A stretch of DNA of 64,000 bases from Glaciibacter superstes DSM 21135. GTDB lineage: Bacteria; Actinomycetota; Actinomycetes; Actinomycetales; Microbacteriaceae. The position numbers were made by a program, and so were the translations under genes. Position 1 is the stretch's first letter, and the number at the start of each line of letters is the position of its first letter. This document shows, piece after piece, positions 1 through 62,813 of the stretch. Where the stretch lies: the NCBI RefSeq assembly GCF_000421145.1, contig NZ_ATWH01000008.1, forward strand, positions 1-64,000. The letters run 5' to 3'. A model generated the notes under the pieces. That model searched no databases, had not been told where the DNA came from, and saw nothing but the letters and a program-made list of their open reading frames with translations.

Positions 1-582
1 CGGTGCCGCTGCCGTGGGGATGGCGTTGTCGATGAGGACGACTGCGATGGCGGCGGCGGTAGCGAAGATGTCGGCGTTGAGGACTCGGCTGCGGGCCGAG
101 GCGCCATCCAGGAGCAGCGCCAACTGCTCGCCGAGCTGTTCGGGGTTGGTGGCGCCGGCCTCGCGGGCGGTATCGGCGAACCGGGCGGCAAAGCCTTCTT
201 TGTAGTTGCGGGCGTATACGCGCGCCTCATGGCCCGGGTCGGGGATCTCGACGGCCGCCGCGATGAATGGACACAGGGGCGCGTGAATGTCGAAGACGGC
301 GAGGAGGCGTTCGCGAGGCGTGAGGTCGGTGCTCTCGAACACTTCAGGCAAGATCTCGGGATCAAACCGGCGTAGGCATTCAGCGATCAGCTCGTCTTTG
401 CCGGTGAAGTGCTGGTACAGCGTGCGCTTGGACACTCCAGCCACCGCGCTGAGCTGGTCCATGCCGGTGCCGTTGATGCCTTGATCGCGGAACAGTTGTT
501 GTGACGCACTGAGGATGCGCTCTCGTGCCCCCCTGCCGCGGCGCAGGCCTCGCGGCCCCTTCTCCAACTCCGTCTCCGTCAT
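1..582 (-). CDS. TetR/AcrR-family transcriptional regulator, C-terminus cut by window edge
   Basis: Open frame of 194 codons running off the left edge, so the protein is partial. After a basic tail the N-terminus shows a typical TetR helix-turn-helix: RERILSASQQLF, then MDQLSAVAGVSKRTLYQHF and a following GKDELIAECL. The rest is the variable ligand-binding region. The start is the ATG at 582-580; a TACACT box lies six bases upstream and there is no Shine-Dalgarno sequence, which suggests a leaderless message. It is divergent from the SDR gene at 707, which it probably represses through the palindrome in the shared region. The ligand cannot be predicted. Confidence 0.9.
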   Translation of the reverse strand, partial: MTETELEKGPRGLRRGRGARERILSASQQLFRDQGINGTGMDQLSAVAGVSKRTLYQHFTGKDELIAECLRRFDPEILPEVFESTDLTPRERLLAVFDIHAPLCPFIAAAVEIPDPGHEARVYARNYKEGFAARFADTAREAGATNPEQLGEQLALLLDGASARSRVLNADIFATAAAIAVVLIDNAIPTAAAP

Positions 583-706
583 AGGCTCAGTGTAGCCCAC
601 TTGGGTACCAATCGGTGTACATAGCTTGACACCCCACGCACCGTCCGCTACGTTAAGTACGCAGATCGGTGTACTTAACATCGGCGCGGCGATTGAATGG
701 AATCTC
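583..706. promoter_or_regulatory. Divergent promoter region with perfect TetR-type palindrome
   Basis: The arms GTTAAGTAC (652-660) and GTACTTAAC (671-679) form a perfect 9-bp inverted repeat around a 10-base spacer. The decamer ATCGGTGTAC occurs at 611-620 and again at 665-674, in each case next to a GTAC core, so there may be two sites, one nearer each gene. That TetR binds here is inferred from position. Confidence 0.6.
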
Positions 707-3110: not shown

Positions 3111-3185
3111 GTCGATTAAACATAGCTGTGGGGCCCTCCATGCTCCGGGGAGCAATACGTGTACTCAGCGCTGTGCTTCATCGAC
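3111..3185. repeat. Hairpin repeat, type B (copy 1)
   Basis: A 75-bp element bounded by GTCGAT and ATCGAC. It starts GTCGATTAAACATAGCTGTG and carries CTCCATGCTCCGGGGAG in the middle, as does the type B copy at 20084-20156. The right arm of the inner hairpin is eroded here (CAGCGCTGTGC in place of CCCACAGCT). A type A element follows after 25 bases. Confidence 0.8.
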
Positions 3186-3210
3186 AAGGTTGCGGGGGCA
3201 GATGCCCGGT

Positions 3211-3281
3211 CGATAAGAACCAGCTGTGGCACTACGCACCCTCGATATACGGGTGCTGTGCCCCACAGTTGGATTTAATCG
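3211..3281. repeat. Hairpin repeat, type A (copy 1)
   Basis: A 71-bp imperfect palindrome ending CGAT...ATCG. The arms CCAGCTGTGGC and GCCCCACAGTTGG surround GCACCCTCGATATACGGGTGC, in which GCACC pairs with GGTGC. It is closest to the copy at 7853-7923, and both read TGGATTTAATCGCCCC at the right end. Confidence 0.85.
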
Positions 3282-10760: not shown

Positions 10761-10905
10761 GGTCTCTCCTGCAAATCGGGAACGGATGGGAAGCTCGGGT
10801 CAGACGCAACAGCTGCCGGGAAGCGGTGTGCGCACCCCGGCATCCGTCATCACAGGCTGCTACGGATGAGGGCGTCCTGCAACTTGGTCGCTCGCAGCAA
10901 TCGGT

Positions 10906-10978
10906 GTCGATTAACCAGCTGTGGCACCACGCACCCTCTATATACGGATGCTGTGCCCCACAGCTGGATCTCGTCGAC
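10906..10978. repeat. Hairpin repeat, type A (copy 3)
   Basis: A 73-bp palindrome bounded by GTCGA and TCGAC, with arms CCAGCTGTGGC and GCCCCACAGCTGG around CTATATACGG. The left flank CGCTCGCAGCAAT plus GTCGATTAA also precedes the type B copy at 3111, so the mobile or amplified unit may extend left of the hairpin. I see nothing else in the gap 10761-11018. Confidence 0.85.
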
Positions 10979-14968: not shown

Positions 14969-16228
14969 TCAGCCGGCCATGGCCTGTTCGAAGGCATCCT
15001 CAACGGGCACCTGACCGGTCAGGGCAAGCTGCATCGCCGTGTAGATCACGGTCGCTGCCTCCGGCCATTCCTCGCCGAGCTGGCCGGTGCGTGACCTGGC
15101 ATTGGCGACCTGTTCGGTGAAGGACTTCATCGTGGGAACCTTCTCCACATATTCCTCGGCCAGCGCCTCCTTGGTCGGCACCAGATAGCGAGCTTCAGAG
15201 AGGGCAAGCTGGTTCTCATCGTCGCTGATGCACTCAACGAACTTCGCTGCGGTGGCCTGCTTCTCGTCGTCACCGGTCACCGGCACGGTCCAGACTTCAC
15301 CGCCGAGCGGTGCGACCGGGGTCTGGCCCGCCTTGTTCACCGGAATCTGAACCGAGTCCCACGTCACGTCTGGGGTCTCCATGAGCGCGGGGATCTGCCA
15401 CGGCCCGTTGATCATCATCGCCGCTTTGCCGGCCACGAACTGGTCCTTGACATCGGCCTGCGACCAGTTGATGACACTCGACGAGGCTGAACCACTCTCG
15501 ACCAGATCGACGATCAGTTGCAGCGCCTCCGTCACCTCAGGGGAACCGAGGTCGGTCTCATCGCCGCCATTGGTCCACATGAACGGGAGGAACTGCCAGG
15601 CACCCTCATAGGTCGCAATGGCCGAGAACGCCATCCCGTACTGGTCGCCGACGGTCAGTGCTGCCGCCGCCGCCTTCAGTTCATCCCACGTCGTTGGCGG
15701 CTCGATGCCCGCTGCGGCCAACAGCTCCGTGTTGTAGAACAGGCCGAGGGTGTTGACCGCGGGCGCAAGGCCGTAGACCTCGCCCTCATAGGTGGCTGCT
15801 TCGAGAATGCCGGGGGCGAATCCAGAGGTGTCGACGTCGTAATCGCTCATGGGCGAAAGCCCGCCGGTTGCGGCGATCTCCTGTACGTCGGGGTTGTCGA
15901 GCATGAGCACATCCGGAAGCGTCTTGGACGATGCCCGCTGCAACACCTTCTGAATGAGGTCCTTGCCAGGCACGCTCTCTCGCTCGATCGTGACGCCGAG
16001 GTCGGTGGCGCACTTGTCGAGCGCTGCCTGCACCAGCGTCTTGTCTGGTTCGTTGTTGTAGTAGTCGAGGATCGTCAGGGTATCTGCACCCTCGCCCGAT
16101 GTTTCGGATCCCCCGGCTCCCCCGGCGCTGCAAGCGCTGAACGCGAGAGGTGCGATGGCGGCCATCGCCAGCAGGGTGGTCAACTTCTTCTTGGTCAACT
16201 TCTTCTTGGTCATTGTCGTTCGGCTCAT
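14969..16228 (-). CDS. Sugar ABC transporter substrate-binding lipoprotein
   Basis: A 419-residue extracellular solute-binding protein (family 1, MalE-like). A lipoprotein signal is evident: a basic n-region, a hydrophobic core and the lipobox LAFSAC, so Cys32 should be lipidated. The mature part shows GLFYNTELLAAAGIEPPTTW and AAMMINGPWQIP, both common in sugar-binding members. AAAGGAG precedes the ATG. The n-region holds a 15-bp tandem duplication (16179-16208) giving KKKLT twice. It is the first gene of the operon and lies downstream of two LacI-type operators. Confidence 0.94.
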   Translation of the reverse strand: MSRTTMTKKKLTKKKLTTLLAMAAIAPLAFSACSAGGAGGSETSGEGADTLTILDYYNNEPDKTLVQAALDKCATDLGVTIERESVPGKDLIQKVLQRASSKTLPDVLMLDNPDVQEIAATGGLSPMSDYDVDTSGFAPGILEAATYEGEVYGLAPAVNTLGLFYNTELLAAAGIEPPTTWDELKAAAAALTVGDQYGMAFSAIATYEGAWQFLPFMWTNGGDETDLGSPEVTEALQLIVDLVESGSASSSVINWSQADVKDQFVAGKAAMMINGPWQIPALMETPDVTWDSVQIPVNKAGQTPVAPLGGEVWTVPVTGDDEKQATAAKFVECISDDENQLALSEARYLVPTKEALAEEYVEKVPTMKSFTEQVANARSRTGQLGEEWPEAATVIYTAMQLALTGQVPVEDAFEQAMAG

Positions 16229-19225: not shown

Positions 19226-19306
19226 CCCGCGCCCGTGGCATCCGCACCGGTTTCAGAAACCGGGCCCACGGCATCCGTCGCCAGCGTTGTCACTGCCAGG
19301 TCAGGC

Positions 19307-19388
19307 GGTGATGAGATCCAGCTGTGGGGCCAAGCACCCGCTATATACGGATGCTGCCGCCCACAGCTGGACGTAACCCCCTTCGCAA
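19307..19388. repeat. Hairpin repeat, type A (copy 4)
   Basis: The 12-bp arms TCCAGCTGTGGG and CCCACAGCTGGA are perfect; inside them AGCACCCG and CGGATGCT pair around the loop CTATATA. The right end is CCCCCTTCGCA. This sub-form is nearly identical to 20183-20264 and differs from the 3-11 kb copies in its termini (GGTGATGAGATCC at the left). It lies in the gap between the SWIM and OsmC genes; the rest of 19226-19488 is featureless. Confidence 0.88.
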
Positions 19389-20083: not shown

Positions 20084-20156
20084 GTCGATTAAACATAGCT
20101 GTGGTGCGCTCCATGCTCCGGGGAGATGCGTGCACCCACAGCTTGTTCTCATCGAC
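20084..20156. repeat. Hairpin repeat, type B (copy 2)
   Basis: A 73-bp element with termini GTCGAT and ATCGAC, inner arms AGCTGTGG and CCCACAGCT, and centre CTCCATGCTCCGGGGAG. The left 20 bases and the centre match 3111-3185. A type A element begins 26 bases further on, the same order and nearly the same spacing as at 3111/3211. Confidence 0.85.
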
Positions 20157-20182
20157 ACTCATTGTCGCTGGCCGGCCAGGCA

Positions 20183-20264
20183 GGTGATGAGATCCAGCTG
20201 TGAGGCCAAGCACCCGCTATATACGGATGCCGCCGCCCACAGCTGGACATAATCCCCCTTCGCA
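20183..20264. repeat. Hairpin repeat, type A (copy 5)
   Basis: Nearly identical to 19307-19388, with arms TCCAGCTGTG and CCCACAGCTGGA, loop CTATATA and right end CCCCCTTCGCA. One substitution in the left arm (GTGAGG for GTGGGG) weakens the stem. It lies between the OsmC and CPBP genes. Confidence 0.87.
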
Positions 20265-23197: not shown

Positions 23198-24459
23198 TGC
23201 TTCGGCAGCAGATCCACGATGGCATCAGCAGCGGTCTTAAGCGCCTGCTCGGAGTTCGCTGATCCGGTCATACGCGACTGGAGCGCGACAACAATCTGGT
23301 CGGCGATCTCCGCGTACGACGCTCCGTAGGCGCGCGGATTTGCGACTTGCAGCTGCTCAGTGAACAAGGCAATCTTATCGTTTCCAGGGAACGGGTCGAT
23401 ATCGTTGCGGATCGGCAGGCTGCCTTCCGCGACGTTCGATTTCGTCGCTATCTCTGGGGTCTGAAGGAACTTCAATAGATCCCACGCGGCGTCCTCGTTC
23501 GGGCCGGCCATGATCATGAAGTTTTCGCCACCGGTGACCGAGGCTGCTTCCTCGCCCGCAGGAAGCAGTGCGACGCCGTAGTCGAGATCGGATGCCTCAT
23601 TCGCGAGGAACGGTAATTGCCATGGGCCGTTAATCATCATCGCCGCGCGTCCCTGGCCGAACTCAGCCGCGACAGCCGCCTGGTCCCAATTTAGCGCCTC
23701 CTTCGACACGCTGCCGTCGTCCATCATCCCAGCCCAATAGTCCAGGGAGACCACGGCCTCCGGCGCCGTCAGATCGTACAGATCTCCCCCGCCCTGCCAA
23801 AGGGCGGGGAGCCACTGGAACACGGCTTGCTGGTTGTTGACGGCGGAGTAGGCAAATCCGAAGTGCTCGGGCGTTGTCAGTTTGGCGGCGGCTGCCTCCA
23901 TCTCCTTCCACGTAGTCGGTGGCTCGATCCCCGCCTCCCTCAGCATGGTCTTGTTGTAGAAGAGCGCGAGGCAGTTCGTCGACGATGGAAGGCCGTAGAT
24001 ACTGCCGTTGTACTTTGCCGATGCGATAACACCTTCGGCGTAGTTGTCGAGCTCGCCCCACTCTGCGACCTTTTCGTCGAGATTCGCGGCGATGCCGAGC
24101 TCGGCGAACTGCTGGTGATCGGGTCCGTTTATGATTACGATGTCAGGGAGCGACCCCGCGCCGGCGGATTGCAGCAAGGACTGCTTAAGATCGGCGTAGG
24201 CAATGAATTTGCGCTCGATCTGCACATCCGGGTGCTCGTCCATATATGCACCCAGATTATCTAGGAGTTGTTTCTCGGCTGTGCCGTCGGCTCCGAAGTA
24301 GTCCCACAGCTTGAGTGTGACCGCCCCGTCTTGGCTCTCGTCCGAGGAATTGTCTGATCCGCCGGGTGCACAGGCCGTCGCCGCGCCGAGAATAGTTACC
24401 GCTGCCGCGAGAATGGCGATCGAACGCCGCGAAACACGGCGTGTTCGGATGGTGGACAT
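23194..24459 (-). CDS. Sugar ABC transporter substrate-binding lipoprotein
   Basis: A 421-residue family 1 solute-binding protein. RTRRVSRRSIAILAAAVTIL then GAATAC gives a twin-basic n-region, hydrophobic core and lipobox ending at Cys30. LALFYNKTMLREAGIEPPTTW and AAMMINGPWQLP are typical of sugar-binding members. AAGGGA lies eight bases before the ATG at 24459; an upstream ATG at 24477 is less well placed. It follows the isomerase gene by 52 bp in the operon. Genes for catabolic enzymes precede the transporter here, the reverse of the usual order. Confidence 0.93.
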   Translation of the reverse strand: MSTIRTRRVSRRSIAILAAAVTILGAATACAPGGSDNSSDESQDGAVTLKLWDYFGADGTAEKQLLDNLGAYMDEHPDVQIERKFIAYADLKQSLLQSAGAGSLPDIVIINGPDHQQFAELGIAANLDEKVAEWGELDNYAEGVIASAKYNGSIYGLPSSTNCLALFYNKTMLREAGIEPPTTWKEMEAAAAKLTTPEHFGFAYSAVNNQQAVFQWLPALWQGGGDLYDLTAPEAVVSLDYWAGMMDDGSVSKEALNWDQAAVAAEFGQGRAAMMINGPWQLPFLANEASDLDYGVALLPAGEEAASVTGGENFMIMAGPNEDAAWDLLKFLQTPEIATKSNVAEGSLPIRNDIDPFPGNDKIALFTEQLQVANPRAYGASYAEIADQIVVALQSRMTGSANSEQALKTAADAIVDLLPKQ

Positions 24460-52996: not shown

Positions 52997-55900
52997 CTAT
53001 ATGCTTCCAGTCGAGTCGACGGTTCCGGTCGCGACGACGGCGGCGTCGCTGTCGATCGTCACCGCGATGACATCCGCTGAGGGTGGCAGCGAAGATACCT
53101 TGACCGTCAGTTGATCACCGGCGACGACCGACGGCATTCCATCGTGGACGGCCGTTCCGATGATCTCCAGCTGCGGATCGGATTGACTCACGGTTTTGCA
53201 CGTGTTGATCGGGCCGGCAGTGAGCGGGATATCACTCGAGCTGCCCGCCAGATGTACTCGCACAGTCATCGGCCGCTCGAGTTCGCCGTCGAAGCAGATC
53301 TTGGCGTCCGCAGATCCGGAAGCGCGAGGCTCGGCGATCATGGACAGTACGCCTGCTTGCCCCAAAGACAGATTCTCGATGCCGTTGCGGTCCGTGCGGT
53401 GCAGATTCCAATCGATGACGCCCGCGGGCATGTCTGTCTGAATCCCGATAACGTCTTCGATGAGAAGCGCAATGGGGGCGAGACCTGTCCACCCTGCAAA
53501 GTCAGGTTTACCCATGTAGTCGGAGCCTCCTTGCACGTTGGGTGCGGAGCCGGCGTCATCGGTGCCAGGGGAAATGTAGTCTTGATCGGCCGCCACCGCG
53601 GCATCCGGGAGCACAATGGGGATGTGCTGGCCGGACTTGTGGCCGGTGGCTGAATTGAGGATCCAATCGGCTGGCTGCCGTTCAGGTGCGTAGAGTTCGA
53701 AGATCGTGCCGGAGTAGTTGTACACCTCGACAATGCCGTCAAGGTAGCGTTTGGCTGCTGTCTCCGCGAACGCGCGATCGCCACTGGCTTCGATCCCCTT
53801 GATAGTGGCGAAAGTTGCCGGCGCCCATACGCCGCCTCGCCAATAGTGGCCCTTCGGATCGTATCGAGAGTCAGTCTTGGCGAGTGCCGGGAAGACCATG
53901 TCTGTCCAGTACTTTGCCGGGTCCTTCAGCGCGTCTACTAACCGGGTGGCTTGTTCGGGGCTGGTGACTGCAGCCAACATCGGCCAGAAGCCTGCGAGGC
54001 TGTCAACTTTCCAGTGTTCTCCCTTGGCGTCGACCTCATAGAAGCGTGCGTCTTGACCGTCCCACATGAAGTCCTGGATCCGCGAGGCGATGTCTTCGGC
54101 CCAGGCGCGATCGGCTGCGGCTCGCTGGGTGTTTCCGGCCGCTTCCTCCAGTGCCGCGAGGCTGTTTCGCATCATGACCATCTGGCTACTGATATCGACG
54201 CTGGCCACACCGCTGCCGGCCCCGTTTCCGCCTTGGTCGAGCTGCGTGGGCAGGTTATCCATACCGTTACCGTTGCCGTTGTTCCAGAACAGCTGATGCG
54301 GCGCAGCCTGGGACCACTGCTGGATCGAGACCCAGTCGGCGTAGGCGCGGAGGGCAGGGAGCACGCGCCGAACGCGGTCGAGGTCGCCGGACTTCTTGAA
54401 GCTTGAAAGTTCAACCCAAGCGAAAAGTGGGGGGTTCACGCCGTTTGCACCGGCGGCCCAGGGGTGGGTCTCGCCAGTTCTGGTGTCGACTGCGCGTCGG
54501 ATCTCGCCGGTCGGCCGTTGTAAGACGTACCAATTGTCCAAGGTCGCGATCATGTCGAAACCGCGCTCTCCGTAGAGGGCATACTGCAATGAGAACAGCG
54601 TGTCCCATTGGAACATGATCGCCGGATCGAAGCCCGAATCAACATAGGTGCGTACCAGCGGTGAGGATTCGCTCGGCTCCAGCAGGTTCTTCGAGAGCAT
54701 GATGCGCCACGTCTGGTTGTACATCTCAACGTATTTTGGGTCCGCATCGGCCACCGGCGTCGGCAATTCTGGGCGCATTTCGTCGTAGCTCCGAGCAGGA
54801 AGGATGTTCTTTTCCGTGGGGTAATACAACCCGTGGGAGGAAGTCGTCACCCACGCGGGCGCATCACCACGCGTCTCGGCGAGGTTCGTGACCGTGAAGT
54901 CTCTGTAGGTCGCCGTTTGCACGCCCCACTGCCTGAAACCGCCGGAGACAGGAGTGAAAGACTCGATTGAGAACGTTGACTGTGCGTCTTCCGGCCGCGA
55001 TTGGGTCGACGGCCAGACTCGCAGGCCATACTCGCCCGACGCCCATGAAAGCTCGAAAGTGTAGCGTTCGCCGGGTGTCCAGGTGAAGGATGTCTCGACG
55101 ATGCGGCTCTCCGAGCCGCTGTTACTTCGGATGATCGACAGCTTCGACTGTTGCCCAACCAGACCGAGCCTGTAGAGTCGCTGGTCGGTGTCGGCACCGG
55201 CAAGAGCGAGTCCGACCGACGCCCACGTCTGATCCGCCAAGTCTTCCGAAACAGGGACAACTATGTCTGCTGTTACTGTCGCCGCTTCCACCGACGCCCC
55301 GGCTTCACACGTCGCGCATATCGTTCGAATCACGGCGGCATCTGAACCATCGCTTGACGAAGTGAGTGAGCCGTCAGAGTTTTCGGACCACGTGCCGCTC
55401 TGCGTTTTCCAGCCGTTCGGGTCTGCTGGCTGTTCCGGCGGGTCCAACTGCTTCGGGTAGCCAGCCTCCACATCTTCGATCGCGTACCCCGTTATCGTCG
55501 CCCTGAGACCATCGGAAGTCTGGATTTCAGCGGAGTTCGGCCAGATGTCTAACGAATCAATGGTGTAACCACCTGCCGGAGCGCCCGGGCGCGGCTGGCC
55601 TTGGGGCCACAGGCGGTAGAACACGTTTCCCTCACGCCACTCGAGCTCAACGTTCTGAATGCTCCCGACCGGCAACGTCCACTCACGTTTCGTATTTGAA
55701 GCACCGGAATCGAGGGCCATGTCTTCACCGCCGGCCGTGCGAACCAATAACGATGAAACGCTTTCCGTTCCGAGGCCGCTCAGCCTCAGCCCCATCTTCC
55801 CTCGTCCAGTGTCGTTGCGGAAGCCGAGCTTGAGCGTCGGCGCGGTTCCAGCAACATCAGCCGCCGGCATGAGCACCTGGAAACTCAGGCGCGCATTCGT

Positions 55901-56131
55901 AAGCGGACGCTCCGGTGAACATTCGTTGCAGAACACGAACCGGGAAGTCCCCGAACCGATCAGCTGCCCCTCCTGAACCGACCACGACCCCGACTCAGTC
56001 GACCACTCGCCATCACTGAACTGCTGCATGTTATCCACAGGCGATCCGTCTTCGTATCCTTCTGAGGCGTTCGCTGGTCCGGCAATGACCGCAAGAGCGA
56101 CTGCTCTTTGGCATTGGATCGTTTCAATCAT
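52997..56131 (-). CDS. Secreted GH63-like (trehalase/glucosidase clan) glycoside hydrolase with duplicated N-terminal module
   Basis: A 1,044-residue protein. A short hydrophobic start (QRAVALAVIAGPANASEG) may be a signal peptide. Residues about 38-220 and 238-418 are two copies of a beta-sandwich-like module; each begins with SGSW or SGTW, then a CxxC (C68/C71, C272/C275), and ends with a WP...RP motif. Residues about 440-960 are the (alpha/alpha)6 catalytic barrel: MFQWDTLFSLQYALYG (D510, probable acid), WNNGNGNGMDNLP, HYWRGGVWAP and TIFELYAPE (E812, probable base). A beta-type C-terminus follows. It resembles GH63 mannosylglycerate hydrolase or glucosidase types; the substrate is not predictable. 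Confidence 0.87.
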   Translation of the reverse strand: MIETIQCQRAVALAVIAGPANASEGYEDGSPVDNMQQFSDGEWSTESGSWSVQEGQLIGSGTSRFVFCNECSPERPLTNARLSFQVLMPAADVAGTAPTLKLGFRNDTGRGKMGLRLSGLGTESVSSLLVRTAGGEDMALDSGASNTKREWTLPVGSIQNVELEWREGNVFYRLWPQGQPRPGAPAGGYTIDSLDIWPNSAEIQTSDGLRATITGYAIEDVEAGYPKQLDPPEQPADPNGWKTQSGTWSENSDGSLTSSSDGSDAAVIRTICATCEAGASVEAATVTADIVVPVSEDLADQTWASVGLALAGADTDQRLYRLGLVGQQSKLSIIRSNSGSESRIVETSFTWTPGERYTFELSWASGEYGLRVWPSTQSRPEDAQSTFSIESFTPVSGGFRQWGVQTATYRDFTVTNLAETRGDAPAWVTTSSHGLYYPTEKNILPARSYDEMRPELPTPVADADPKYVEMYNQTWRIMLSKNLLEPSESSPLVRTYVDSGFDPAIMFQWDTLFSLQYALYGERGFDMIATLDNWYVLQRPTGEIRRAVDTRTGETHPWAAGANGVNPPLFAWVELSSFKKSGDLDRVRRVLPALRAYADWVSIQQWSQAAPHQLFWNNGNGNGMDNLPTQLDQGGNGAGSGVASVDISSQMVMMRNSLAALEEAAGNTQRAAADRAWAEDIASRIQDFMWDGQDARFYEVDAKGEHWKVDSLAGFWPMLAAVTSPEQATRLVDALKDPAKYWTDMVFPALAKTDSRYDPKGHYWRGGVWAPATFATIKGIEASGDRAFAETAAKRYLDGIVEVYNYSGTIFELYAPERQPADWILNSATGHKSGQHIPIVLPDAAVAADQDYISPGTDDAGSAPNVQGGSDYMGKPDFAGWTGLAPIALLIEDVIGIQTDMPAGVIDWNLHRTDRNGIENLSLGQAGVLSMIAEPRASGSADAKICFDGELERPMTVRVHLAGSSSDIPLTAGPINTCKTVSQSDPQLEIIGTAVHDGMPSVVAGDQLTVKVSSLPPSADVIAVTIDSDAAVVATGTVDSTGSI

Positions 56132-56262: not shown

Positions 56263-56544
56263 ATGACTGATCTCGATACCTCCGCCGATTCCGCCCAGCG
56301 CATCACCATGTTCGGTGCCCAGTGGTGCAGCGACTGCCGCCGCTCGAAGTCGCTGCTCGACCGACTCGAGGTCGAGTACGACTACGTCGACCTTGAGTCC
56401 GTCGAAGACGGGGCAGACCGGGCCTTCGCGATCAGCGGACGCACCAGCATCCCGGTCATCGTCTTCCCAGACGAGACGCACGTCGTCGAGCCGACCGACC
56501 CCGAACTGCGTGCGAAGCTCACCGCGTTGGGCCGTATCTCCTAG
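56263..56544 (+). CDS. Mycoredoxin/glutaredoxin-like protein
   Basis: A 93-residue thioredoxin-fold protein with the active site GAQWCSDCRRSKSLLD (CSDC) and TSIPVIVFPDETHVVEPTDP holding the cis-Pro. In actinobacteria such proteins reduce mycothiol-mixed disulfides; most have CxYC, so the Asp is a variation. The second of two adjacent ATGs was chosen because TAACAT lies six bases before it, the leaderless spacing seen elsewhere. It is a single gene. Confidence 0.9.
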   Translation: MTDLDTSADSAQRITMFGAQWCSDCRRSKSLLDRLEVEYDYVDLESVEDGADRAFAISGRTSIPVIVFPDETHVVEPTDPELRAKLTALGRIS

Positions 56545-56573
56545 CCAGAGGCGATTCCGCTCGCTCCTCCCTC

Positions 56574-56632
56574 GTGAGGGGACAAAAAGTGCTCTCCTTT
56601 CGCGCGTTTCAGAGCGATTTGTGACCCCTCAC
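56574..56632. repeat. GTGAGGGG hairpin (copy 3)
   Basis: A 59-bp palindrome: left arm GTGAGGGGACAAAAAGTGCT plus CT, right arm AGAGCGATTTGTGACCCCTC plus AC, with 18 of 22 positions paired. It follows the mycoredoxin-like gene by 29 bases. Its stem is of the AAAGTGCTC type shared with 62691-62750. Confidence 0.78.
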
Positions 56633-56643
56633 GCGCCGCCCAT

Positions 56644-56760
56644 CGTCGAGTAGGTTGCGACCTTTGTCGCAAGCGAAGTGTGCACCTTTGCGCGATGTCG
56701 TTTCCCGTCGCTTTCTCCAAGCTGGATACGAACCACATCGGGTGCACAATCTCGGTCGTC
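56644..56760 (+). promoter_or_regulatory. Upstream region of the ABC exporter operon, similar to 60549-60650
   Basis: TTGCGAC (56655-56661) and GTCGCAA (56666-56672) form a perfect inverted repeat with a four-base spacer. Further matches to 60549-60650 follow in the same order: TGT..ACCT..GC.CGATGTC, then AAGCTGG/AAGGCTGG and ATCGGGTG. It is a candidate binding region for the NarL-type response regulator. Confidence 0.55.
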
Positions 56761-56800
56761 GACCGGACACCACGATGGGTTCAGAAAGCGAAGCTCAATC

Positions 56801-57514
56801 GTGCACGCCATAGAAATCGACCATCTGGTCAAGTCGTACGACCATCTCAATGCCGTCGACGACCTCACCTTCGCGGTTCGAGCCGGCTCGGTCACCGGCT
56901 TCCTCGGCCCCAACGGCGCCGGCAAGACGTCGACCATCCAGGTTCTTCTCGGCCTTGCGAAGGCAACGTCGGGAACAGCGACGGTGTTCGGTCAGAACTA
57001 CGGGGACCTCGAAGACCCGACCGGCACCGTTGGAGCGCTGCTGGAGCCCAGCGGCATCCACCCCGCCCGCAGCGGCCGCGATCACCTGCGTGTGCTGGCA
57101 GCCTCTGCGAAGATTCCTGACTCACGAGTCGACGCGGTGGTGAAGGCCGTCGGCATGGAGCAGGCCGCACGCCGCAAGGCCAGGACCTACTCAATGGGAA
57201 TGCGGCAGCGGATCGGAATCGCCGCCGCACTGCTTGGGAGCCCCCGCATCCTGATCCTCGACGAGCCGGCCAACGGCCTCGACCCGGCCGGAATGCTGTG
57301 GCTGCGAAAACTTCTTCGCGAGTTCGCGGATGACGGTGGCACGGTGCTGCTCTCCAGTCATGTACTGGCCGAGGTGACCCAGGTCGCCGACGACATCCTG
57401 ATCATCGCCCAGGGCAAACTTGTGCTCACCCAGGAACTCGACGCGCTGGTCGACAGCGCTTCGCTGGAAGACACCTACCTGAACGTCACAGCCGGAGCGG
57501 AGGCGATGCGCTGA
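56801..57514 (+). CDS. ABC-2 exporter ATP-binding protein
   Basis: A 237-residue ATPase of the drug/peptide-exporter (BcrA/CcmA-like) group: GFLGPNGAGKTSTIQVLLGL (Walker A), TYSMGMRQRIGIAAALLG (signature), RILILDEPANGLDP (Walker B) and LLSSHVLAEV (switch His). The GTG at 56801 was chosen because the first beta strand (HAIEIDHLVKSYDHL) follows at once; an ATG at 56678 would add 41 residues across the duplicated regulatory region. It overlaps the permease gene by one base and opens the exporter/two-component operon. Confidence 0.93.
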   Translation: MHAIEIDHLVKSYDHLNAVDDLTFAVRAGSVTGFLGPNGAGKTSTIQVLLGLAKATSGTATVFGQNYGDLEDPTGTVGALLEPSGIHPARSGRDHLRVLAASAKIPDSRVDAVVKAVGMEQAARRKARTYSMGMRQRIGIAAALLGSPRILILDEPANGLDPAGMLWLRKLLREFADDGGTVLLSSHVLAEVTQVADDILIIAQGKLVLTQELDALVDSASLEDTYLNVTAGAEAMR

Positions 57515-58383
57515 TGATCAAGGCAGAGATCTTGAAGATTCGCACCCTGTCTACAGGCTGGGTGCTCGCCTGGGTGGCCCTCGGGGTGACCGCGATCATG
57601 CAGCTGGTCAACGTGCTCGCGCCGACCCTCGTCGCCGCACTCCCCACCGGAGACGGCGGTGACGTTCAGGAGTTCTCCGAATCGGTCAACTCCGTCGCCC
57701 AACTCGCCCTACCCGAATATCAGCGCAGCATGCTCGACGTGCTCGGAAACGGCCCGTTGTGGGGCACAGGATTCCCCGGAATCGGCGTCATGATTGCGCT
57801 GTTCCTCGGCGTCATCGTTGCCACCTCAGACTTTCGCTTCGGCGGCATCATCACGACGGCACTGGCGACGCCCAGCCGCCTCCGCGTGGTCGGGGCGAAA
57901 GCGGCGGCGGTCGCGATCGTGACCGCGCTCGGAGCGATCGCGATGGCCCTGATCACCGGGCTCGCCCTTCTTGCCGGAACGGCCGTGGCGCAGGTACCGA
58001 TCCAGGTTCAGACCGGCGAAGTCCTGTCGATCTGGGGCCGCGGCACGATCGTGCTGATCATCTACGGCCTCATCGGACTGGCAGCGGGGCTGCTCATCCG
58101 GCACCAGGTGGCAGCCGTCATCGCGGTCTTCGCCCTCGTGCTGGTCGAACCGCTGATCTCAGGGATCGCTCTCCTCGCAACCGGCACCACGCCCATCGCC
58201 ACTGCGGTCCTCCCTCTCACCCTGGGCCCTGTCGCCTCGAGCGGGGAGACTCCCCTGACCCTCGAGTTGTTCACCGGCTCAGGAGCATTGACCCCGTTGG
58301 CCGCACTGATCGGCCTGCTCGTCTGGGGCGCCGTTCTCCTGTCCATCGCCGCACGGCGCCTGGTTCAGAAAGACCTCGTCTAG
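57514..58383 (+). CDS. ABC-2 exporter permease
   Basis: A 289-residue membrane protein with about six hydrophobic segments. The start MIKAEILKIRTLSTGWVLAW is typical of ABC-2 permeases of this kind, and a large extracytoplasmic loop (about residues 40-85) precedes the second segment. Its ATG overlaps the ATPase stop by one base and the kinase gene begins 54 bp after its stop. It forms the exporter with the ATPase; the cargo is unknown, and lantibiotic or cell-envelope stress export is possible. Confidence 0.9.
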   Translation: MIKAEILKIRTLSTGWVLAWVALGVTAIMQLVNVLAPTLVAALPTGDGGDVQEFSESVNSVAQLALPEYQRSMLDVLGNGPLWGTGFPGIGVMIALFLGVIVATSDFRFGGIITTALATPSRLRVVGAKAAAVAIVTALGAIAMALITGLALLAGTAVAQVPIQVQTGEVLSIWGRGTIVLIIYGLIGLAAGLLIRHQVAAVIAVFALVLVEPLISGIALLATGTTPIATAVLPLTLGPVASSGETPLTLELFTGSGALTPLAALIGLLVWGAVLLSIAARRLVQKDLV

Positions 58384-58437
58384 TTGATCAGCGCATCCGG
58401 GCAACCGAATGCACAACGAACACGAGATACTCAAGTG

Positions 58438-59835
58438 ATGAACGACACCGGCACCAGCAACACCAGGGTGGCCGGCGAACCCGGGCGTAACCACCTGGCC
58501 GTCTGGTTCGATGAAGCGCTCTCGAAGATCGGTCTTCGAGGGCGCTTCGCCAGGGATTGCCTGCTCGCGGCGGTCACAGCCTTGATCTCGGTGCCCGTGT
58601 TCGTGCTGGTCCTGGCTGCCCTCGTCGCGTCAGAAGGCTACTCGTTCAGCCCCGCCCAGGTCGGCCTGGTCGCCGTCGTCGTTGGCGTCCAGGCGCTCAC
58701 GCTCTGCATCAGGCGGGTGAACCCGGCGCTGTGTCTCGCGATCGTGGCCGTGTTCCAGGTGGTGCTGATCACCATCATGCCGCAGGATATCTCGGCGCGC
58801 GGCGCAGCATCCGTCATCGCCGCGTACACGGTCGGCGCCTACCTGCCGACCAGAACCATGCTTCGGGTCGTGACCGGGGTGGCACTCTTCGAGGTGGTCT
58901 TCGGCTATATCGCCGGCAGCACGCTGAACCCACTTGTGCAACCGGTCACCGTCTCTGACCCTGCGCTGCTGGCTCTGAACTACCTCCTCGCCACCGGGCT
59001 GCTCTACCTGGTGTCGGTCTTCCTCGGAAAGTTCGTTGCCAACCGTCGCGAGTATATTGAGCTGCTTCGGGCGAGAGCGCGCGACGTCCTGCGCGAACAG
59101 CAGGCGCGAACGGATGCCGCGATCGACGCCGAACGCTCCAGAATGGCGCGCGAGCTGCACGATATTGCGGCCCATCACCTGTCTGGCATGGTCATTCAGG
59201 CCGCTGCCGTGGAGCGACTCATCGATCGTGACCCGCAAGCGGCGAAGGCCGCGACGAGCTGGATTCGCAGCCAGGGCAAAGAGACTCTCGCGAACCTCCG
59301 GCTCGTGGTGGGCATCCTTCGAGAACGAGGCGCAGACCATGAATTGAATGAGACGGATGCCCCGGTGCCCGGCCTGGCCGTGGCCGAGCACCTGGTGGAG
59401 ATGGCGCGCTCACTCGGAACCACCGTGGACTACGACGTCACCGGCGAGCCCTATCCTCTCCCTCCCCTCGCCGATGTCACGGTCTACCGGGTCATGCAGG
59501 AGGCTCTGTCCAACGCGCGCGAGCACGCGCCGGAAGCCGGTGTGAAACTCACCCTGCAGTATTCACACGACCAGGTGCAGCTCGTCGCAGCCAATGGCCC
59601 GGTCAGCCCTCACGCAGAACGGACGGCAGACGAACGCCGGGGACTCGGACTCATCGGCATGCATGAGCGCGCCAAACTGGTCGGTGCGACACTGGAGACC
59701 GGGCCGACCGCATCCGGCGGATGGCGGGTGGCCTTCACCCTTCCCCGAGACAAGGATGCGTTCGGGACGGAATCAACCCGATCAGAATCTCCCCAATCAG
59801 AACCTCCCCAATCAGAATGGAGCGACTCCGCATGA
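58438..59835 (+). CDS. Sensor histidine kinase (HisKA_3/NarL-partner type)
   Basis: A 465-residue membrane kinase. Residues about 40-200 have five or six membrane segments with no large external domain, so it probably senses within the membrane. ERSRMARELHDIAAHHLSG carries the phospho-acceptor H241; the HATPase domain has VMQEALSNAREHAPEAGV (N box) and RRGLGLIGMHERAKL (G box). The C-terminal tail has a 15-bp tandem repeat. The regulator gene overlaps it by ATGA. It pairs with that regulator and probably monitors the exporter's substrate. Confidence 0.94.
   Translation: MNDTGTSNTRVAGEPGRNHLAVWFDEALSKIGLRGRFARDCLLAAVTALISVPVFVLVLAALVASEGYSFSPAQVGLVAVVVGVQALTLCIRRVNPALCLAIVAVFQVVLITIMPQDISARGAASVIAAYTVGAYLPTRTMLRVVTGVALFEVVFGYIAGSTLNPLVQPVTVSDPALLALNYLLATGLLYLVSVFLGKFVANRREYIELLRARARDVLREQQARTDAAIDAERSRMARELHDIAAHHLSGMVIQAAAVERLIDRDPQAAKAATSWIRSQGKETLANLRLVVGILRERGADHELNETDAPVPGLAVAEHLVEMARSLGTTVDYDVTGEPYPLPPLADVTVYRVMQEALSNAREHAPEAGVKLTLQYSHDQVQLVAANGPVSPHAERTADERRGLGLIGMHERAKLVGATLETGPTASGGWRVAFTLPRDKDAFGTESTRSESPQSEPPQSEWSDSA
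59781..59820 (+). repeat. 15-bp coding tandem repeat at the histidine-kinase C-terminus
   Basis: ATCAGAATCTCCCCA (59781-59795), ATCAGAACCTCCCCA (59796-59810) and a partial ATCAGAATGG encode a SESPQ/SEPPQ/SEW tail just before the stop codon. It lies next to the regulator's start. Confidence 0.85.
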
Positions 59836-60497
59836 TCAGGGTGCTACTGGTTGACGACCAGTCCGTCGTGCGGGCGGGCTTCCGCGTCATCCTCGAAGAC
59901 GCGGGTGACATCGAGATCGTCGGCGAGGCATCCAACGGTCCGGCCGCGGCCGACCTGGCGCGGCGCCTGACACCTGACGTGGTGTGCATGGACGTACGGA
60001 TGCCGGGAGGCGACGGCATTGCCGCGACTCGGCAGATCACCGCGGACGCGGATCCCGGCCAGGGGCCCGCCGTCCTGGTCGTCACGACGTTCGACCTCGA
60101 CGAATACGTTTTCGGCGCGCTCGAGGCCGGGGCGAGCGGATTCATCCTCAAGGATGCGGAACCTGATGACCTCATCGACGCGGTGCGAAAGCTGGCCCGC
60201 GGGGAGGGGCTCGTCGACCAGTCGGTCACCCGTAGAGTGATCGCTGAGTTCGCCAGGCGGAAGGCACCACATCAGCCTGAATCTGCTGCCGTTGAGGTTC
60301 TCACCAGCCGCGAGATCGACATCGTACGGTTGCTGGCCCAGGGTCACTCGAACGCGGAGATCGCCGGTCGGCTCTTCGTTGAAACCAGTACCGTCAAGTC
60401 ACACCTCGGTCGGGCGATGACGAAGATCGGCGTGCGCGACCGGGTGCAGACAGTGGTGTGGGCTTATCAGAACGGCCTGGCAGAGCCCGACGCCTGA
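59832..60497 (+). CDS. NarL/LuxR-type response regulator
   Basis: A 221-residue regulator. The receiver domain has the acidic pair D8/D9, phospho-acceptor D54 in VVCMDVRMPGGDG and Lys in GFILKDAEPDDL. The C-terminal LuxR-type helix-turn-helix is LTSREIDIVRLLAQGHSNAE, then LFVETSTVKSHLGRAMTKIG. Translation is coupled to the kinase (ATGA). It probably controls the exporter operon and perhaps the serine hydrolase that follows, since both units share a similar upstream region. Confidence 0.95.
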   Translation: MIRVLLVDDQSVVRAGFRVILEDAGDIEIVGEASNGPAAADLARRLTPDVVCMDVRMPGGDGIAATRQITADADPGQGPAVLVVTTFDLDEYVFGALEAGASGFILKDAEPDDLIDAVRKLARGEGLVDQSVTRRVIAEFARRKAPHQPESAAVEVLTSREIDIVRLLAQGHSNAEIAGRLFVETSTVKSHLGRAMTKIGVRDRVQTVVWAYQNGLAEPDA

Positions 60498-60548
60498 GCG
60501 GTTGCGTGAGCGGTTGCGTGGTCGATTGTCGACCTGACGACCGGGCGT

Positions 60549-60650
60549 CTGCCACTTTGGTCGCAACCAGGATGTAGACCTCCGCTCGATGTCCTCCTGC
60601 CGCGGTTTCGGAAGGCTGGGAACTGAGCGAAATCGGGTGACGCACAACCG
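60549..60650 (+). promoter_or_regulatory. Upstream region of the serine hydrolase gene, similar to 56644-56760
   Basis: The right arm GTCGCAA (60560-60566) is identical to that at 56666 and lies at the same distance from a degenerate left arm CTGCCAC (60549-60555). Then TGTAGACCTCCGCTCGATGTC, broken here by substitutions relative to the first copy, AAGGCTGG and ATCGGGTG follow in the same order and at similar spacing. Confidence 0.5.
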
Positions 60651-60697
60651 GGCATCCGCCTGAACACCGCGATCCGCTCGGAAACCGGAGCCTGCAC

Positions 60698-62677
60698 ATG
60701 GGTGCGCCCAGAGTTCGAAAATTACTCGTTGCGACCGCCGCAGCGCTACTCGCCGCCGTGCTGACGGGGGCCACGGCCCAGTCTGCCCAGGCACTCGTGG
60801 CGCCACCGATTCCCACGCCGGTCACGACCGCAGAACTGAACCAGGCGGATGTCGACGCGTGGCTCGACGGGCTGCTGCCGGCTGCCCTGGATCGCTCAGG
60901 GATCGCCGGTGCCGCGGTGTCGGTGGTTCACGATGGGGCCGTTCTCACTGAGCGCGGTTTCGGCCGTTCCGACACGGGCAACGGCGAGACACCGGCGAAG
61001 GCTGTCGACCCAGAGTCGACGCTCTTTCGCGTCGGGTCGGTGTCGAAGCTCTTCACCGCTACCTCGGTGCTGCAGTTGGTCGAGAGTGGTGACCTCGATC
61101 TCGACACCGATGTGAACGACTACCTCGATTTCACCCTGCCGGCGACCTTCGACGAGCCGATCACGCTGCGACACCTGCTTACCCACACGGCAGGGTTTGA
61201 AGAGCGCCTCGACGGCAACGTGCGGTCCGACGGAAACCTCAGCCTTCACGATTTCGTCTCGATCAACCCCCCTGAGCGGGTGTTCGAGCCCGGGACAGTG
61301 CCCGCATACTCCAACTACAGCAATGCCCTTGCCGGTTACATCGTGGAGCGCGTCAGCGGAATGCCGTTCGAGGAGTACGTCGATCGTCAGATATTCGACC
61401 GGATTGGCATGGATTCTTCGTCGTTCGAGCAGCCATTGCCTGCTCCACTTGCTTCTCGCCTTTCGAATGCCTACGCCAACGCCTCGGGGCCTGCCGCGCC
61501 GTTTGAGTTCGTCGGCCCGGTGCCAGCAGGCGCGCTGTCGGCCTCGACAGCGGATATCAGCCAGTTCATGCTGGCTCAACTGGGCGAACTGCCCGATGAG
61601 CAATCCCTTTTCTCCGACGCAACGCGCGAACTCATGCAGCAACCCGCACTGGATGCAGATTCGCTCGGCGCATTTGCCAGCGGACCGCGCATGACCCTCG
61701 GTTTCTTCGACGACAGTCGAAACGGCCACCGCATCATCGGACATGGCGGAGACACCCAGTTCTTCCACTCTCATCTGCAGCTCTTTCCAGACGAGAGAAC
61801 CGGAATCTACGTCACGCTGAACAGCAGCGGCGCGAGCCCCATCGACACTCTTGAGCTGCGAGAGGCAGTGGTTCAGGGATTCGCCGACCGCTACTTCCCT
61901 GCAACAAGCGGCGCGACCGAAACGACGGTAACGGATACGGGCGCAGAGCACGCTGCCCTGGCGGCTGGAACCTATGAGACCTCCCGGTCATTCCAGAGCA
62001 CGTTCATCAGCGCAATCGGGCTGCCCTCCCAGGTGCAGGTCACAACAGAGGCTGAAGGGCGCCTCCTCATCACACCTGGTCCGGAGAGCCTGCATCCGGC
62101 GCTCTTCGAAGAGATTGAGCCGTGGGTCTGGCAGGAGGTCGACGGGCAGCGGATCATCACCCTGCGCGAGAGCGACGGGGCCGTAGACGCCATTGGCTTC
62201 AGCTCGGCGTTCGCTTTCCTCCGCGTCGACACCGTGCATAACAGTGCGATTGCCTTCCCGGTGCTCGGTGTCTCGGCGGCTGTTCTCCTCGGCAGCCTGC
62301 TGCTCTGGCCGATCGGTGCATTCGTTCGCCGTCGCCTGAACCTGCCCGCTCGGGTCGGTCGGAAGGGGAGCGTCGTTCGGATTCTGACCCGCGTCGGAAG
62401 CGGCAGCGCTGTTCTGGCCCTCGTGGGCTGGCTGGTAAGCATTATGCTGCTCCTCGGCGACCAGAGCCTCCCGGAACTCGCCCTGCGAGCCCTTCAGGGT
62501 CTGCAGCTCATCGGTGTGCTGGCGATCGTGCCAGCGGTGCTCAACGTGATCAACGGCATCCGTCACCACACCGGGTGGAAGATCCTGGTCGGCCGAATCC
62601 TGGTGGTGCTCGCCCTCGGCGGCGTGGCCTGGTTCGCGCTGGTCTTCAAACTGATCGCGCCAAGCGTGTCGTACTGA
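60698..62677 (+). CDS. Membrane-anchored serine hydrolase (beta-lactamase class C / PBP-like)
   Basis: A 659-residue protein. A signal peptide (VRKLLVATAAALLAAVLTGA, cleavage near AQSAQA) is followed by an extracellular beta-lactamase-like domain: LFRVGSVSKLFTATSVLQLV (SxxK nucleophile), VPAYSNYSNALAGYIVERVS (YxN) and IIGHGGDTQFFHS (HxG). Residues about 515-655 hold four membrane segments. Such proteins are D-amino-acid esterases, carboxypeptidase-like or peptide hydrolases. Following the exporter/two-component operon with a similar upstream region, it may belong to the same response. GGAG precedes the ATG. Confidence 0.92.
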   Translation: MGAPRVRKLLVATAAALLAAVLTGATAQSAQALVAPPIPTPVTTAELNQADVDAWLDGLLPAALDRSGIAGAAVSVVHDGAVLTERGFGRSDTGNGETPAKAVDPESTLFRVGSVSKLFTATSVLQLVESGDLDLDTDVNDYLDFTLPATFDEPITLRHLLTHTAGFEERLDGNVRSDGNLSLHDFVSINPPERVFEPGTVPAYSNYSNALAGYIVERVSGMPFEEYVDRQIFDRIGMDSSSFEQPLPAPLASRLSNAYANASGPAAPFEFVGPVPAGALSASTADISQFMLAQLGELPDEQSLFSDATRELMQQPALDADSLGAFASGPRMTLGFFDDSRNGHRIIGHGGDTQFFHSHLQLFPDERTGIYVTLNSSGASPIDTLELREAVVQGFADRYFPATSGATETTVTDTGAEHAALAAGTYETSRSFQSTFISAIGLPSQVQVTTEAEGRLLITPGPESLHPALFEEIEPWVWQEVDGQRIITLRESDGAVDAIGFSSAFAFLRVDTVHNSAIAFPVLGVSAAVLLGSLLLWPIGAFVRRRLNLPARVGRKGSVVRILTRVGSGSAVLALVGWLVSIMLLLGDQSLPELALRALQGLQLIGVLAIVPAVLNVINGIRHHTGWKILVGRILVVLALGGVAWFALVFKLIAPSVSY

Positions 62678-62690
62678 TTCGCGCCCGGCT

Positions 62691-62750
62691 GTGAGGGGAC
62701 GCAAAGTGCTCGAATCTCTCGCGATTCAGAGCACTTTGCGTCCCCCTCAC
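62691..62750. repeat. GTGAGGGG hairpin (copy 4)
   Basis: The most perfect copy: arms GTGAGGGGACGCAAAGTGCT plus C and GAGCACTTTGCGTCCCCCTC plus AC pair fully apart from one extra C, around an 18-base loop. It lies between the convergent ends of the serine hydrolase and alcohol dehydrogenase genes and should terminate both. Confidence 0.87.
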
Positions 62751-62813
62751 GGCCGCACGACCTCCCGCCGCGGACTCAATCGACAGCGAACGCATGAGGG
62801 AGGTACTCCAATC

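What the first reader, a model, noticed from the sequence alone, without database searches (positions are those of the whole stretch)
56644..62677. Shared upstream region marks an exporter, two-component and serine hydrolase response module
About 100 bp before the ABC exporter operon are mirrored before the serine hydrolase gene, with matching blocks (GTCGCAA, CGATGTC, ATCGGGTG) in the same order. The genes between encode a kinase and a NarL-type regulator. The likely meaning is one regulon: the regulator binds TTGCGAC-N4-GTCGCAA-like sites, adjusts an exporter and makes a membrane-anchored beta-lactamase-like enzyme, possibly against an envelope-active compound.
Basis: partly seen in the sequence, partly recalled or inferred. 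Interest (0 to 1): 0.55.

Follow-up and report, generated by a model that had tools for sequence, protein, structure and literature searches.

The report
Shared switch for exporter and peptidase-like enzyme
In an actinobacterial genome the same stretch of control DNA sits in front of an exporter-and-sensor operon and in front of a membrane-anchored peptidase-like enzyme, and relatives carry the same control DNA with only one of the two, so this looks like one small defence regulon, perhaps against a peptide-type antibiotic.

Summary
The repeat is real. A direct repeat of about 140 bp (56656-56794 and 60550-60691; 95 of 138 aligned pairs identical) reaches almost to both start codons; 0 of 2000 shuffles match its score. 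GTCGCAA-N20-CGATGTC occurs without mismatch only twice in the 4.80-Mb genome, both times here. A weight matrix trained only on other actinobacteria ranks these two sites first in the window (27.0 and 16.5; next 0.5).

Relatives explain it. The element precedes hydrolase-kinase-regulator operons (type A, 25 of 27 loci, 12 of them used for training) and exporter-kinase-regulator operons (type B, 10 of 10, four weakly); hydrolase loci without this regulator score low. The window has both outputs beside one regulator; among 396 genomes of the order, no other appeared in both protein searches. Binding, direction of control and signal are untested.

The enzyme models as an extracellular S12-type hydrolase with C-terminal transmembrane helices; Lip3, a lipopeptide-cleaving DL-peptidase, is among its best structural matches. 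New variant of a known kind.

The parts
56655..56744 (+). R1, control element before the exporter operon: exact dyad TTGCGAC-N4-GTCGCAA (56655-56672), CGATGTC (56693-56699), AAGCTGG (56719-56725), ATCGGGTG (56737-56744)
   Evidence: weight-matrix score 16.5; covariance-model rank 4 in the own genome, E 0.086, not separated from noise
56745..56800 (+). presumed leader, similar to the leader before the hydrolase
   Evidence: 3' part, 0 of 2000 shuffles
56801..57514 (+). ABC exporter ATPase (GTG start)
   Evidence: PF00005; best NCBIfam TIGR03740 lantibiotic protection at 198.4 bits, below its cut-off 309.75
57514..58383 (+). ABC membrane subunit, five hydrophobic segments, no Pfam or NCBIfam family
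58438..59835 (+). HisKA_3 histidine kinase with at least five N-terminal hydrophobic segments
59832..60497 (+). NarL-type response regulator (receiver plus GerE domain)
60549..60639 (+). R2, control element before the hydrolase: left arm 60549-60555, GTCGCAA 60560-60566, CGATGTC 60587-60593, AAGGCTGG 60612-60619, ATCGGGTG 60632-60639
   Evidence: weight-matrix score 27.0; best covariance-model match in the own genome, E 1.5e-5
60640..60697 (+). presumed leader before the hydrolase
60698..62677 (+). secreted S12-type serine hydrolase (SVSK, YSN, HGG) with four C-terminal hydrophobic segments
   Evidence: PF00144, motifs, hydropathy, model pLDDT 86.8, structure matches

Best explanation
A self-contained, probably autoregulated defence module. 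A membrane-embedded kinase senses an envelope-active, possibly peptide-type compound and phosphorylates the NarL-type regulator; the regulator dimer binds the conserved element before two transcription units, exporter-kinase-regulator (R1) and hydrolase (R2), and switches both on, so that the compound is moved away by the exporter and cleaved outside by the membrane-anchored hydrolase. Shown here: the two elements, their conservation, and their linkage to this regulator family and to both kinds of output. Inferred: the linked regulator reads them (about 85%), it activates (about 70%), the substrate is a D-residue-containing (lipo)peptide (about 40-45%), and R1 and R2 are copies of one promoter and leader made in this lineage (about 55-60%).
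For: Repeat beyond 2000 shuffles; only two exact GTCGCAA-N20-CGATGTC in the own genome; matrix trained on 13 other-genome sites puts R2 and R1 first. Score 10 or more in 14 of 15 and 11 of 12 type A loci (13 of the 15 not used for training) and 7 of 10 type B loci (10 of 10 at 6 or more), against 0 of 3 exporter loci with a 53-59% regulator, 0 of 6 hydrolase loci without the regulator, 0 of 2 with a regulator under 50%, and 0 of 61 distant hydrolase loci. The putative recognition segment of the regulator is 90% identical on average to type A, 69% to the 13 exporter-type loci, 41% to 4 outgroups. In L243 the hydrolase and a separate kinase-regulator unit each have a strong copy. Hydrolase model aligns with the DL-peptidase Lip3 over 479 residues to its last residue, Z 38.2; Lip3 is described as lipopeptide-induced (PMC13188892, passages). 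Closest solved relatives of the regulator are VraR entries.
Against: No binding or expression data. In the own genome R1 ranks only fourth with the covariance model. Two type A loci (L050, L149) have no scored site, and L144, a hydrolase locus where no kinase or regulator was seen, has by eye a dyad and CGATGTG at a changed spacing. Four type B sites (6.4 to 11.1) overlap the noise (distant-locus maximum 6.8; L254, fetched by motif, 11.0 with no module gene). In the operator alone R2 is closer to L047 (23) than to R1 (19). 16 further regulator-like matches in the genome, best 55%, could cross-talk. Substrate class rests on fold similarity, and esterases and amidases match about as well.
Confidence: 0.7

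Rival explanations
1. The similarity is only the trace of a DNA duplication (promoter plus leader copied once) and carries no shared regulation.
For: The repeat also covers the presumed leader, where blocks are less conserved in relatives; R1 and R2 are each other's best match over the full region among 44 others.
Against: The same blocks at the same 28-bp spacing precede type A and type B operons in other families, and score low where the regulator is missing.
Confidence: 0.08
2. The element is read by another regulator or an alternative sigma factor rather than by the linked NarL-type regulator.
For: The genome holds 16 further regulator-like matches at E up to 1e-15; no sigma-70-like promoter was found in 56500-62800.
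Against: The element goes with the presence of this regulator and with its recognition segment, and R1 precedes the regulator's own operon.
Confidence: 0.12
3. One regulon, but a cell-wall role: the hydrolase trims or repairs peptidoglycan (DD-peptidase-like) or destroys beta-lactams, and the exporter protects the envelope.
For: Same fold as DD-peptidases and class C beta-lactamases (Z about 35); VraR-like regulator, a family linked to cell-wall antibiotics in PMC7581861 (passages).
Against: Class C beta-lactamase and AmpH models far below cut-off; Lip3 matches over the membrane part too; exporter pairing suggests a toxic compound (inference).
Confidence: 0.3
4. The conserved stretch is an RNA leader (riboswitch or attenuator) rather than a DNA operator.
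For: Similarity runs through the presumed leader to the start codons.
Against: No Rfam match at E up to 0.1 in either leader; RNAalifold finds no pair in 30 aligned elements; constant spacing.
Confidence: 0.04

Closest known systems
Lip3 DL-peptidase of Paenibacillus (PDB 9sn1)
   Same: S12-like catalytic domain and C-terminal part align over 479 residues, Z 38.2, rmsd 4.9, 18% identity; induced by a lipopeptide (PMC13188892, passages; the original paper was not held).
   Different: Substrate of the window enzyme unknown; Lip3's regulation by a linked two-component system was not seen in what I read.
[quoted passage not shown]
   Same: Ser-XX-Lys and Tyr catalytic region and resistance by cleavage of D-residue peptides (PMC8127968, passages; PMC9541196, passages, puts BogQ in family S12).
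   Different: No sequence comparison with BogQ or TriF was made; Li et al. 2018 was not held.
ClbP (7mdf, 7mdc, 7ul6)
   Same: Catalytic domain outside plus C-terminal membrane helices; Z 35.9, rmsd 6.8 for 7mdf.
   Different: ClbP has a three-helix membrane domain and activates an exported precursor (PMC9889268, abstract in listing); four segments are predicted here.
LnrJK-LnrLMN of Bacillus subtilis
   Same: Two-component system that induces an ABC exporter operon in response to a membrane-active compound (PMC7472640, passages).
   Different: There lnrLMN is reported as the only target of LnrK; no hydrolase output. Sequence membership not tested.
LiaRS / VraRS and AbrB1/B2 of Streptomyces coelicolor
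   Same: NarL-type regulators; VraR entries are the best solved relatives of the window regulator; AbrB1 described as a VraR/LiaR homologue (PMC7581861, passages).
   Different: Different outputs; no exporter-plus-hydrolase pair described in the passages read.

Membership tests
NarL-type two-component system | HisKA_3 kinase beside a receiver-GerE regulator | tested here: met
   PF07730 and PF02518 in the kinase, PF00072 and PF00196 in the regulator, all above cut-off
Type A/B regulon defined here | Element with GTCGYAA and GATG 28 bp apart upstream of a unit linked to a regulator of about 60% identity or more | tested here: met
Type A/B regulon defined here | The regulator binds the element | not testable with these tools
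   needs gel shift or footprint
S12 / PF00144 serine hydrolases | PF00144 match with SxxK, YxN and HxG motifs | tested here: met
   197.1 bits against cut-off 27; SVSK, YSN, HGG; in the alignment of 32, 31 keep S-x-x-K, 31 YSN, 28 HGG
D- or DL-peptidases with membrane anchor (Lip3, ClbP, BogQ/TriF) | External catalytic domain plus C-terminal transmembrane helices | tested here: met
   hydropathy and model helices 516-547, 558-586, 593-622, 627-649; Lip3 aligned 46..659. Prediction only.
D- or DL-peptidases with membrane anchor (Lip3, ClbP, BogQ/TriF) | Cleaves bonds next to D residues | not testable with these tools
   needs enzyme assay
Class C beta-lactamase | Score above the curated cut-off of NF033085 | tested here: not met
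   75.2 bits against 415
Lantibiotic protection ABC transporter (TIGR03740) | ATPase above the curated cut-off | tested here: not met
   198.4 bits against 309.75, though the best of 186 families
LiaR/VraR regulators | Envelope-stress regulon with its partner proteins | not tested
   only sequence similarity to solved VraR entries was seen

The most novel reading that the evidence does not exclude
One regulator lineage has changed its output between exporting a toxic peptide and cutting it, keeping the operator while the gene behind it differs; the window is a rare state with both outputs, made by copying promoter and leader. The hydrolases would then be inducible, membrane-anchored actinobacterial peptidases against D-residue lipopeptides, and the element a handle for finding further resistance genes.
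Probability: 0.35. Interest if true: 0.65.

Novelty: new variant of a known kind. Interest (0 to 1): 0.5.

Why it matters
It gives a concrete control element for an actinobacterial sensor-regulator family for which my searches of the held library listed no description, and ties a membrane-anchored peptidase-like enzyme of unknown substrate to an exporter through shared regulation. The enzyme's role becomes testable: find the inducer with a promoter reporter, then ask whether that compound is cut and exported. It is also a case in which the output of a regulator differs between relatives while its operator is kept.

Tried and rejected
RNA-leader reading: no Rfam match in the leaders and no conserved pairs; the three Rfam rows, all below gathering score, are microRNA families on the palindrome at 62685-62756 and are taken as chance. 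Beta-lactamase proper: far below cut-off. Phage-defence reading: PADLOC gave generic ATPase rows for the exporter ATPase and two rows on the C-terminal part of the regulator, none for the other three proteins. Wider regulon by covariance model: apart from R2 the own-genome matches, R1 included (rank 4, E 0.086), do not separate from noise, so no further members are claimed; two one-mismatch matches of the exact pattern were not examined. Origin of the exporter: the ATPase tree leaves the window unresolved. My notebook figure of about 63% identity was a rough estimate; 95 of 138 is the count. Literature: searches listed no paper on this combination or motif; this covers only the held open-access library. 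Li et al. 2018 and Zhang et al. 2026 were not held and are used only through papers that cite them.

Rows left out: the matrix left out L038 and L040 as near-copies of L041 and L037, and L047; L038 and L040 are counted among the 15 type A loci outside training, so 13 of 15 includes two near-copies. L042 (used for training) and L047 have sites (42.0, 39.2), but their DNA ends soon after the hydrolase, so they are not counted as type A. Loci fetched through the motif model (L243-L255) are not in the counts. The regulator and kinase trees left out L244 and L246, whose contig lengths equal those of L040 and L034, and loci without the gene in the fetched DNA.
Full report
WHAT IS THERE. Five genes on the + strand: ABC ATPase (56801-57514), ABC membrane subunit (57514-58383), HisKA_3 kinase (58438-59835), NarL-type regulator (59832-60497) and a PF00144 serine hydrolase (60698-62677). 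Stop and start codons overlap between ATPase and membrane subunit and between kinase and regulator, so the first four are probably one transcript (inference). A glutaredoxin-like gene lies before and a zinc alcohol-dehydrogenase-like gene, on the other strand, after them.

THE OBSERVATION. The regions 56656-56794 and 60550-60691 align in the same orientation with score 37, against at most 18 in 2000 dinucleotide shuffles; 95 of 138 aligned pairs are identical. The part up to the third block and the part from there to the start codon are each beyond all 2000 shuffles; DNA upstream of the dyad is not similar. In the real window 8 of 19753 random pairs of 250-bp pieces score as high; the three I aligned are other repeats in the window. 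GTCGCAA-N20-CGATGTC without mismatch occurs twice in the 4.80-Mb genome, at these two places; with up to 3 mismatches there are 659 matches on both strands, against 372 for the reversed control pattern.

RELATIVES. The hydrolase search in one genome per species kept 80 loci. Of the 18 actinobacterial loci L032-L049 (48-58% identity), 14 are followed by a kinase (42-48%) and a regulator (70-76%), two end soon after the hydrolase, and two (L048, L049) show neither; L050 has a more distant set (41, 35 and 66%). I call this arrangement type A. In a sample of 396 genomes of the window's order, 19 have the hydrolase (E up to 1e-60) and 14 the exporter membrane subunit (E up to 1e-20), own genome included in both; no other genome is in both lists. 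Ten of the 13 other exporter loci have ATPase, membrane subunit, kinase and regulator (62-68%) in the window's order and no hydrolase row in the fetched DNA: type B; the other three have regulators of 53-59%. In the window's genus the membrane subunit is found in 1 of 57 genomes, its own, and no hydrolase match in 36 congeners is better than 2.7e-19. In a class-wide sample the membrane subunit was found in 2 of 296, the own genome and a type B genome already seen.

THE ELEMENT. Upstream of type A hydrolases there is a conserved element: a C-rich left arm, GTCGYAA, a block near CGATG exactly 28 bp further, and a block near AAGGCTGG about 30 bp further again. A 54-position matrix from 13 of these sites, window not used, gives R2 27.0 and R1 16.5 in the window; the next value is 0.5. 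Among loci fetched by protein search, score 10 or more is reached in 14 of 15 and 11 of 12 type A loci; outside training it is 13 of 15, two of them near-copies of training loci. In type B, 10 of 10 reach 6 and 7 reach 10. Score 10 is reached in 0 of 3 exporter loci with the more distant regulator, 0 of 6 hydrolase loci without kinase or regulator seen, 0 of 2 with a regulator under 50%, and 0 of 61 distant hydrolase loci, whose maximum is 6.8. Hence the four f14 type B sites (6.4 to 11.1) rest mainly on their position. Exceptions: L050 and L149 (type A) have no scored site though fragments such as GGTCGTAG or AAGGTCGG are visible, and L144 (no regulator seen) shows a dyad and CGATGTG at a changed spacing (by eye). 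A covariance model of 30 elements finds R2 first in the own genome (E 1.5e-5), but R1 only fourth (E 0.086), inside the noise. Class-wide it matched 42 of 394 genomes at E up to 0.001. I fetched 13 such regions from 12 genomes: nine hold the type A module with a site (two appear to be contigs already seen), and four do not, of which one, L254, has a site of 11.0 and no module gene. L243 carries two strong copies, before the hydrolase and before the kinase-regulator unit (54.6 and 52.9).

READING THE ANATOMY. A dyad spacing of 4 gives the highest arm complementarity of nine tried (mean 3.95 of 7 over 39 sites; next 3.05; no shuffle control). With no sigma-70-like promoter found, the simplest layout is a regulator dimer on the dyad, a second site or -35 region at CGATGTC about three helical turns on, and the core promoter at the AAGCTGG block. 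This layout is inference.

HISTORY. The window's regulator and kinase group with type A (98/97 and 99/99), at an unresolved place in or at the base of it; the ten type B regulators form their own group (99/99), but the joining fork is weak (91/40). The hydrolase falls in the actinobacterial group that holds type A (100/99). The exporter is like type B in sequence and order, but its ATPase tree is unresolved. Over the full promoter region R1 and R2 are each other's best match among 44 others (37; next 20 for R1 and 28 for R2, both L143, a type A locus of the same family). In the operator alone R2 is closer to L047 (23) than to R1 (19), and in the leader R2 is as close to L143 as to R1 (19 each). 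So a copy made in the window's lineage is favoured, not proven, and whether the exporter was kept or gained is open.

FUNCTION. The hydrolase has SVSK, YSN and HGG motifs, a signal-like N terminus and four C-terminal hydrophobic segments, and a confident model (pLDDT 86.8). Best structural matches are IS11 esterase (Z 39.2), a Pyrococcus PBP homologue (38.5) and the Lip3 DL-peptidase (38.2, 479 residues, to the last residue of the model), practically tied; D-amino acid amidase has 37.0, ClbP 35.9, and R61 DD-peptidase and AmpC about 35. Lip3 is described as lipopeptide-induced and cleaving DL-amide bonds in syringafactin (PMC13188892, passages). The regulator's best solved relatives are VraR entries. 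A kinase with several membrane segments and little sequence outside fits sensing in the membrane (inference). A peptide-type, envelope-active compound is the most likely signal and substrate, but only as a hypothesis.

VERDICT. It is a new variant of a known kind: a two-component detoxification module with two outputs under one conserved element.

Noticed in passing
56573-56637 and 62685-62757: Two similar hairpin-forming palindromes (GTGAGGGGAC...GTCCC(C)CTCAC type) flank the module. The second has matches at seven other places of the genome at E up to 0.01; the first is not among those rows.
   Followed up: partly
about 3126-3273, 10880-10968, 19282-19371, 20099-20247: Repeated DNA sharing GCACC-C-CTATATACGGATGC...CCCCACAGCTGGA-like sequence; nature not studied.
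   Followed up: no
15654-15749 and 23876-23971: Another pair of similar stretches (score 38), possibly within related genes.
   Followed up: no
L251, L253: Weaker covariance-model hits of the element lie near other NarL-type kinase/regulator pairs (regulators 45-48%), in L253 also near an exporter ATPase (48%), hinting at a wider family of related elements.
   Followed up: partly
L243:7410 and 9544: Two strong copies of the element, one before the hydrolase and one before the separate kinase-regulator unit; their operators are very alike (score 44).
   Followed up: yes
type A loci L032-L046: Hydrolases of type A often have a lipobox-like motif (12 of 15 by a rough pattern, the stretch not reaching the signal peptide in at least two); the window's signal peptide has no cysteine.
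   Followed up: partly
own genome: Nine matches of the hydrolase in the genome, itself included; the other eight are distant (E 5.2e-18 or weaker).
   Followed up: no
52997-56131 (-): Large open frame (1044 aa) with MGH1-like and trehalase-type glycoside hydrolase domains.
   Followed up: no
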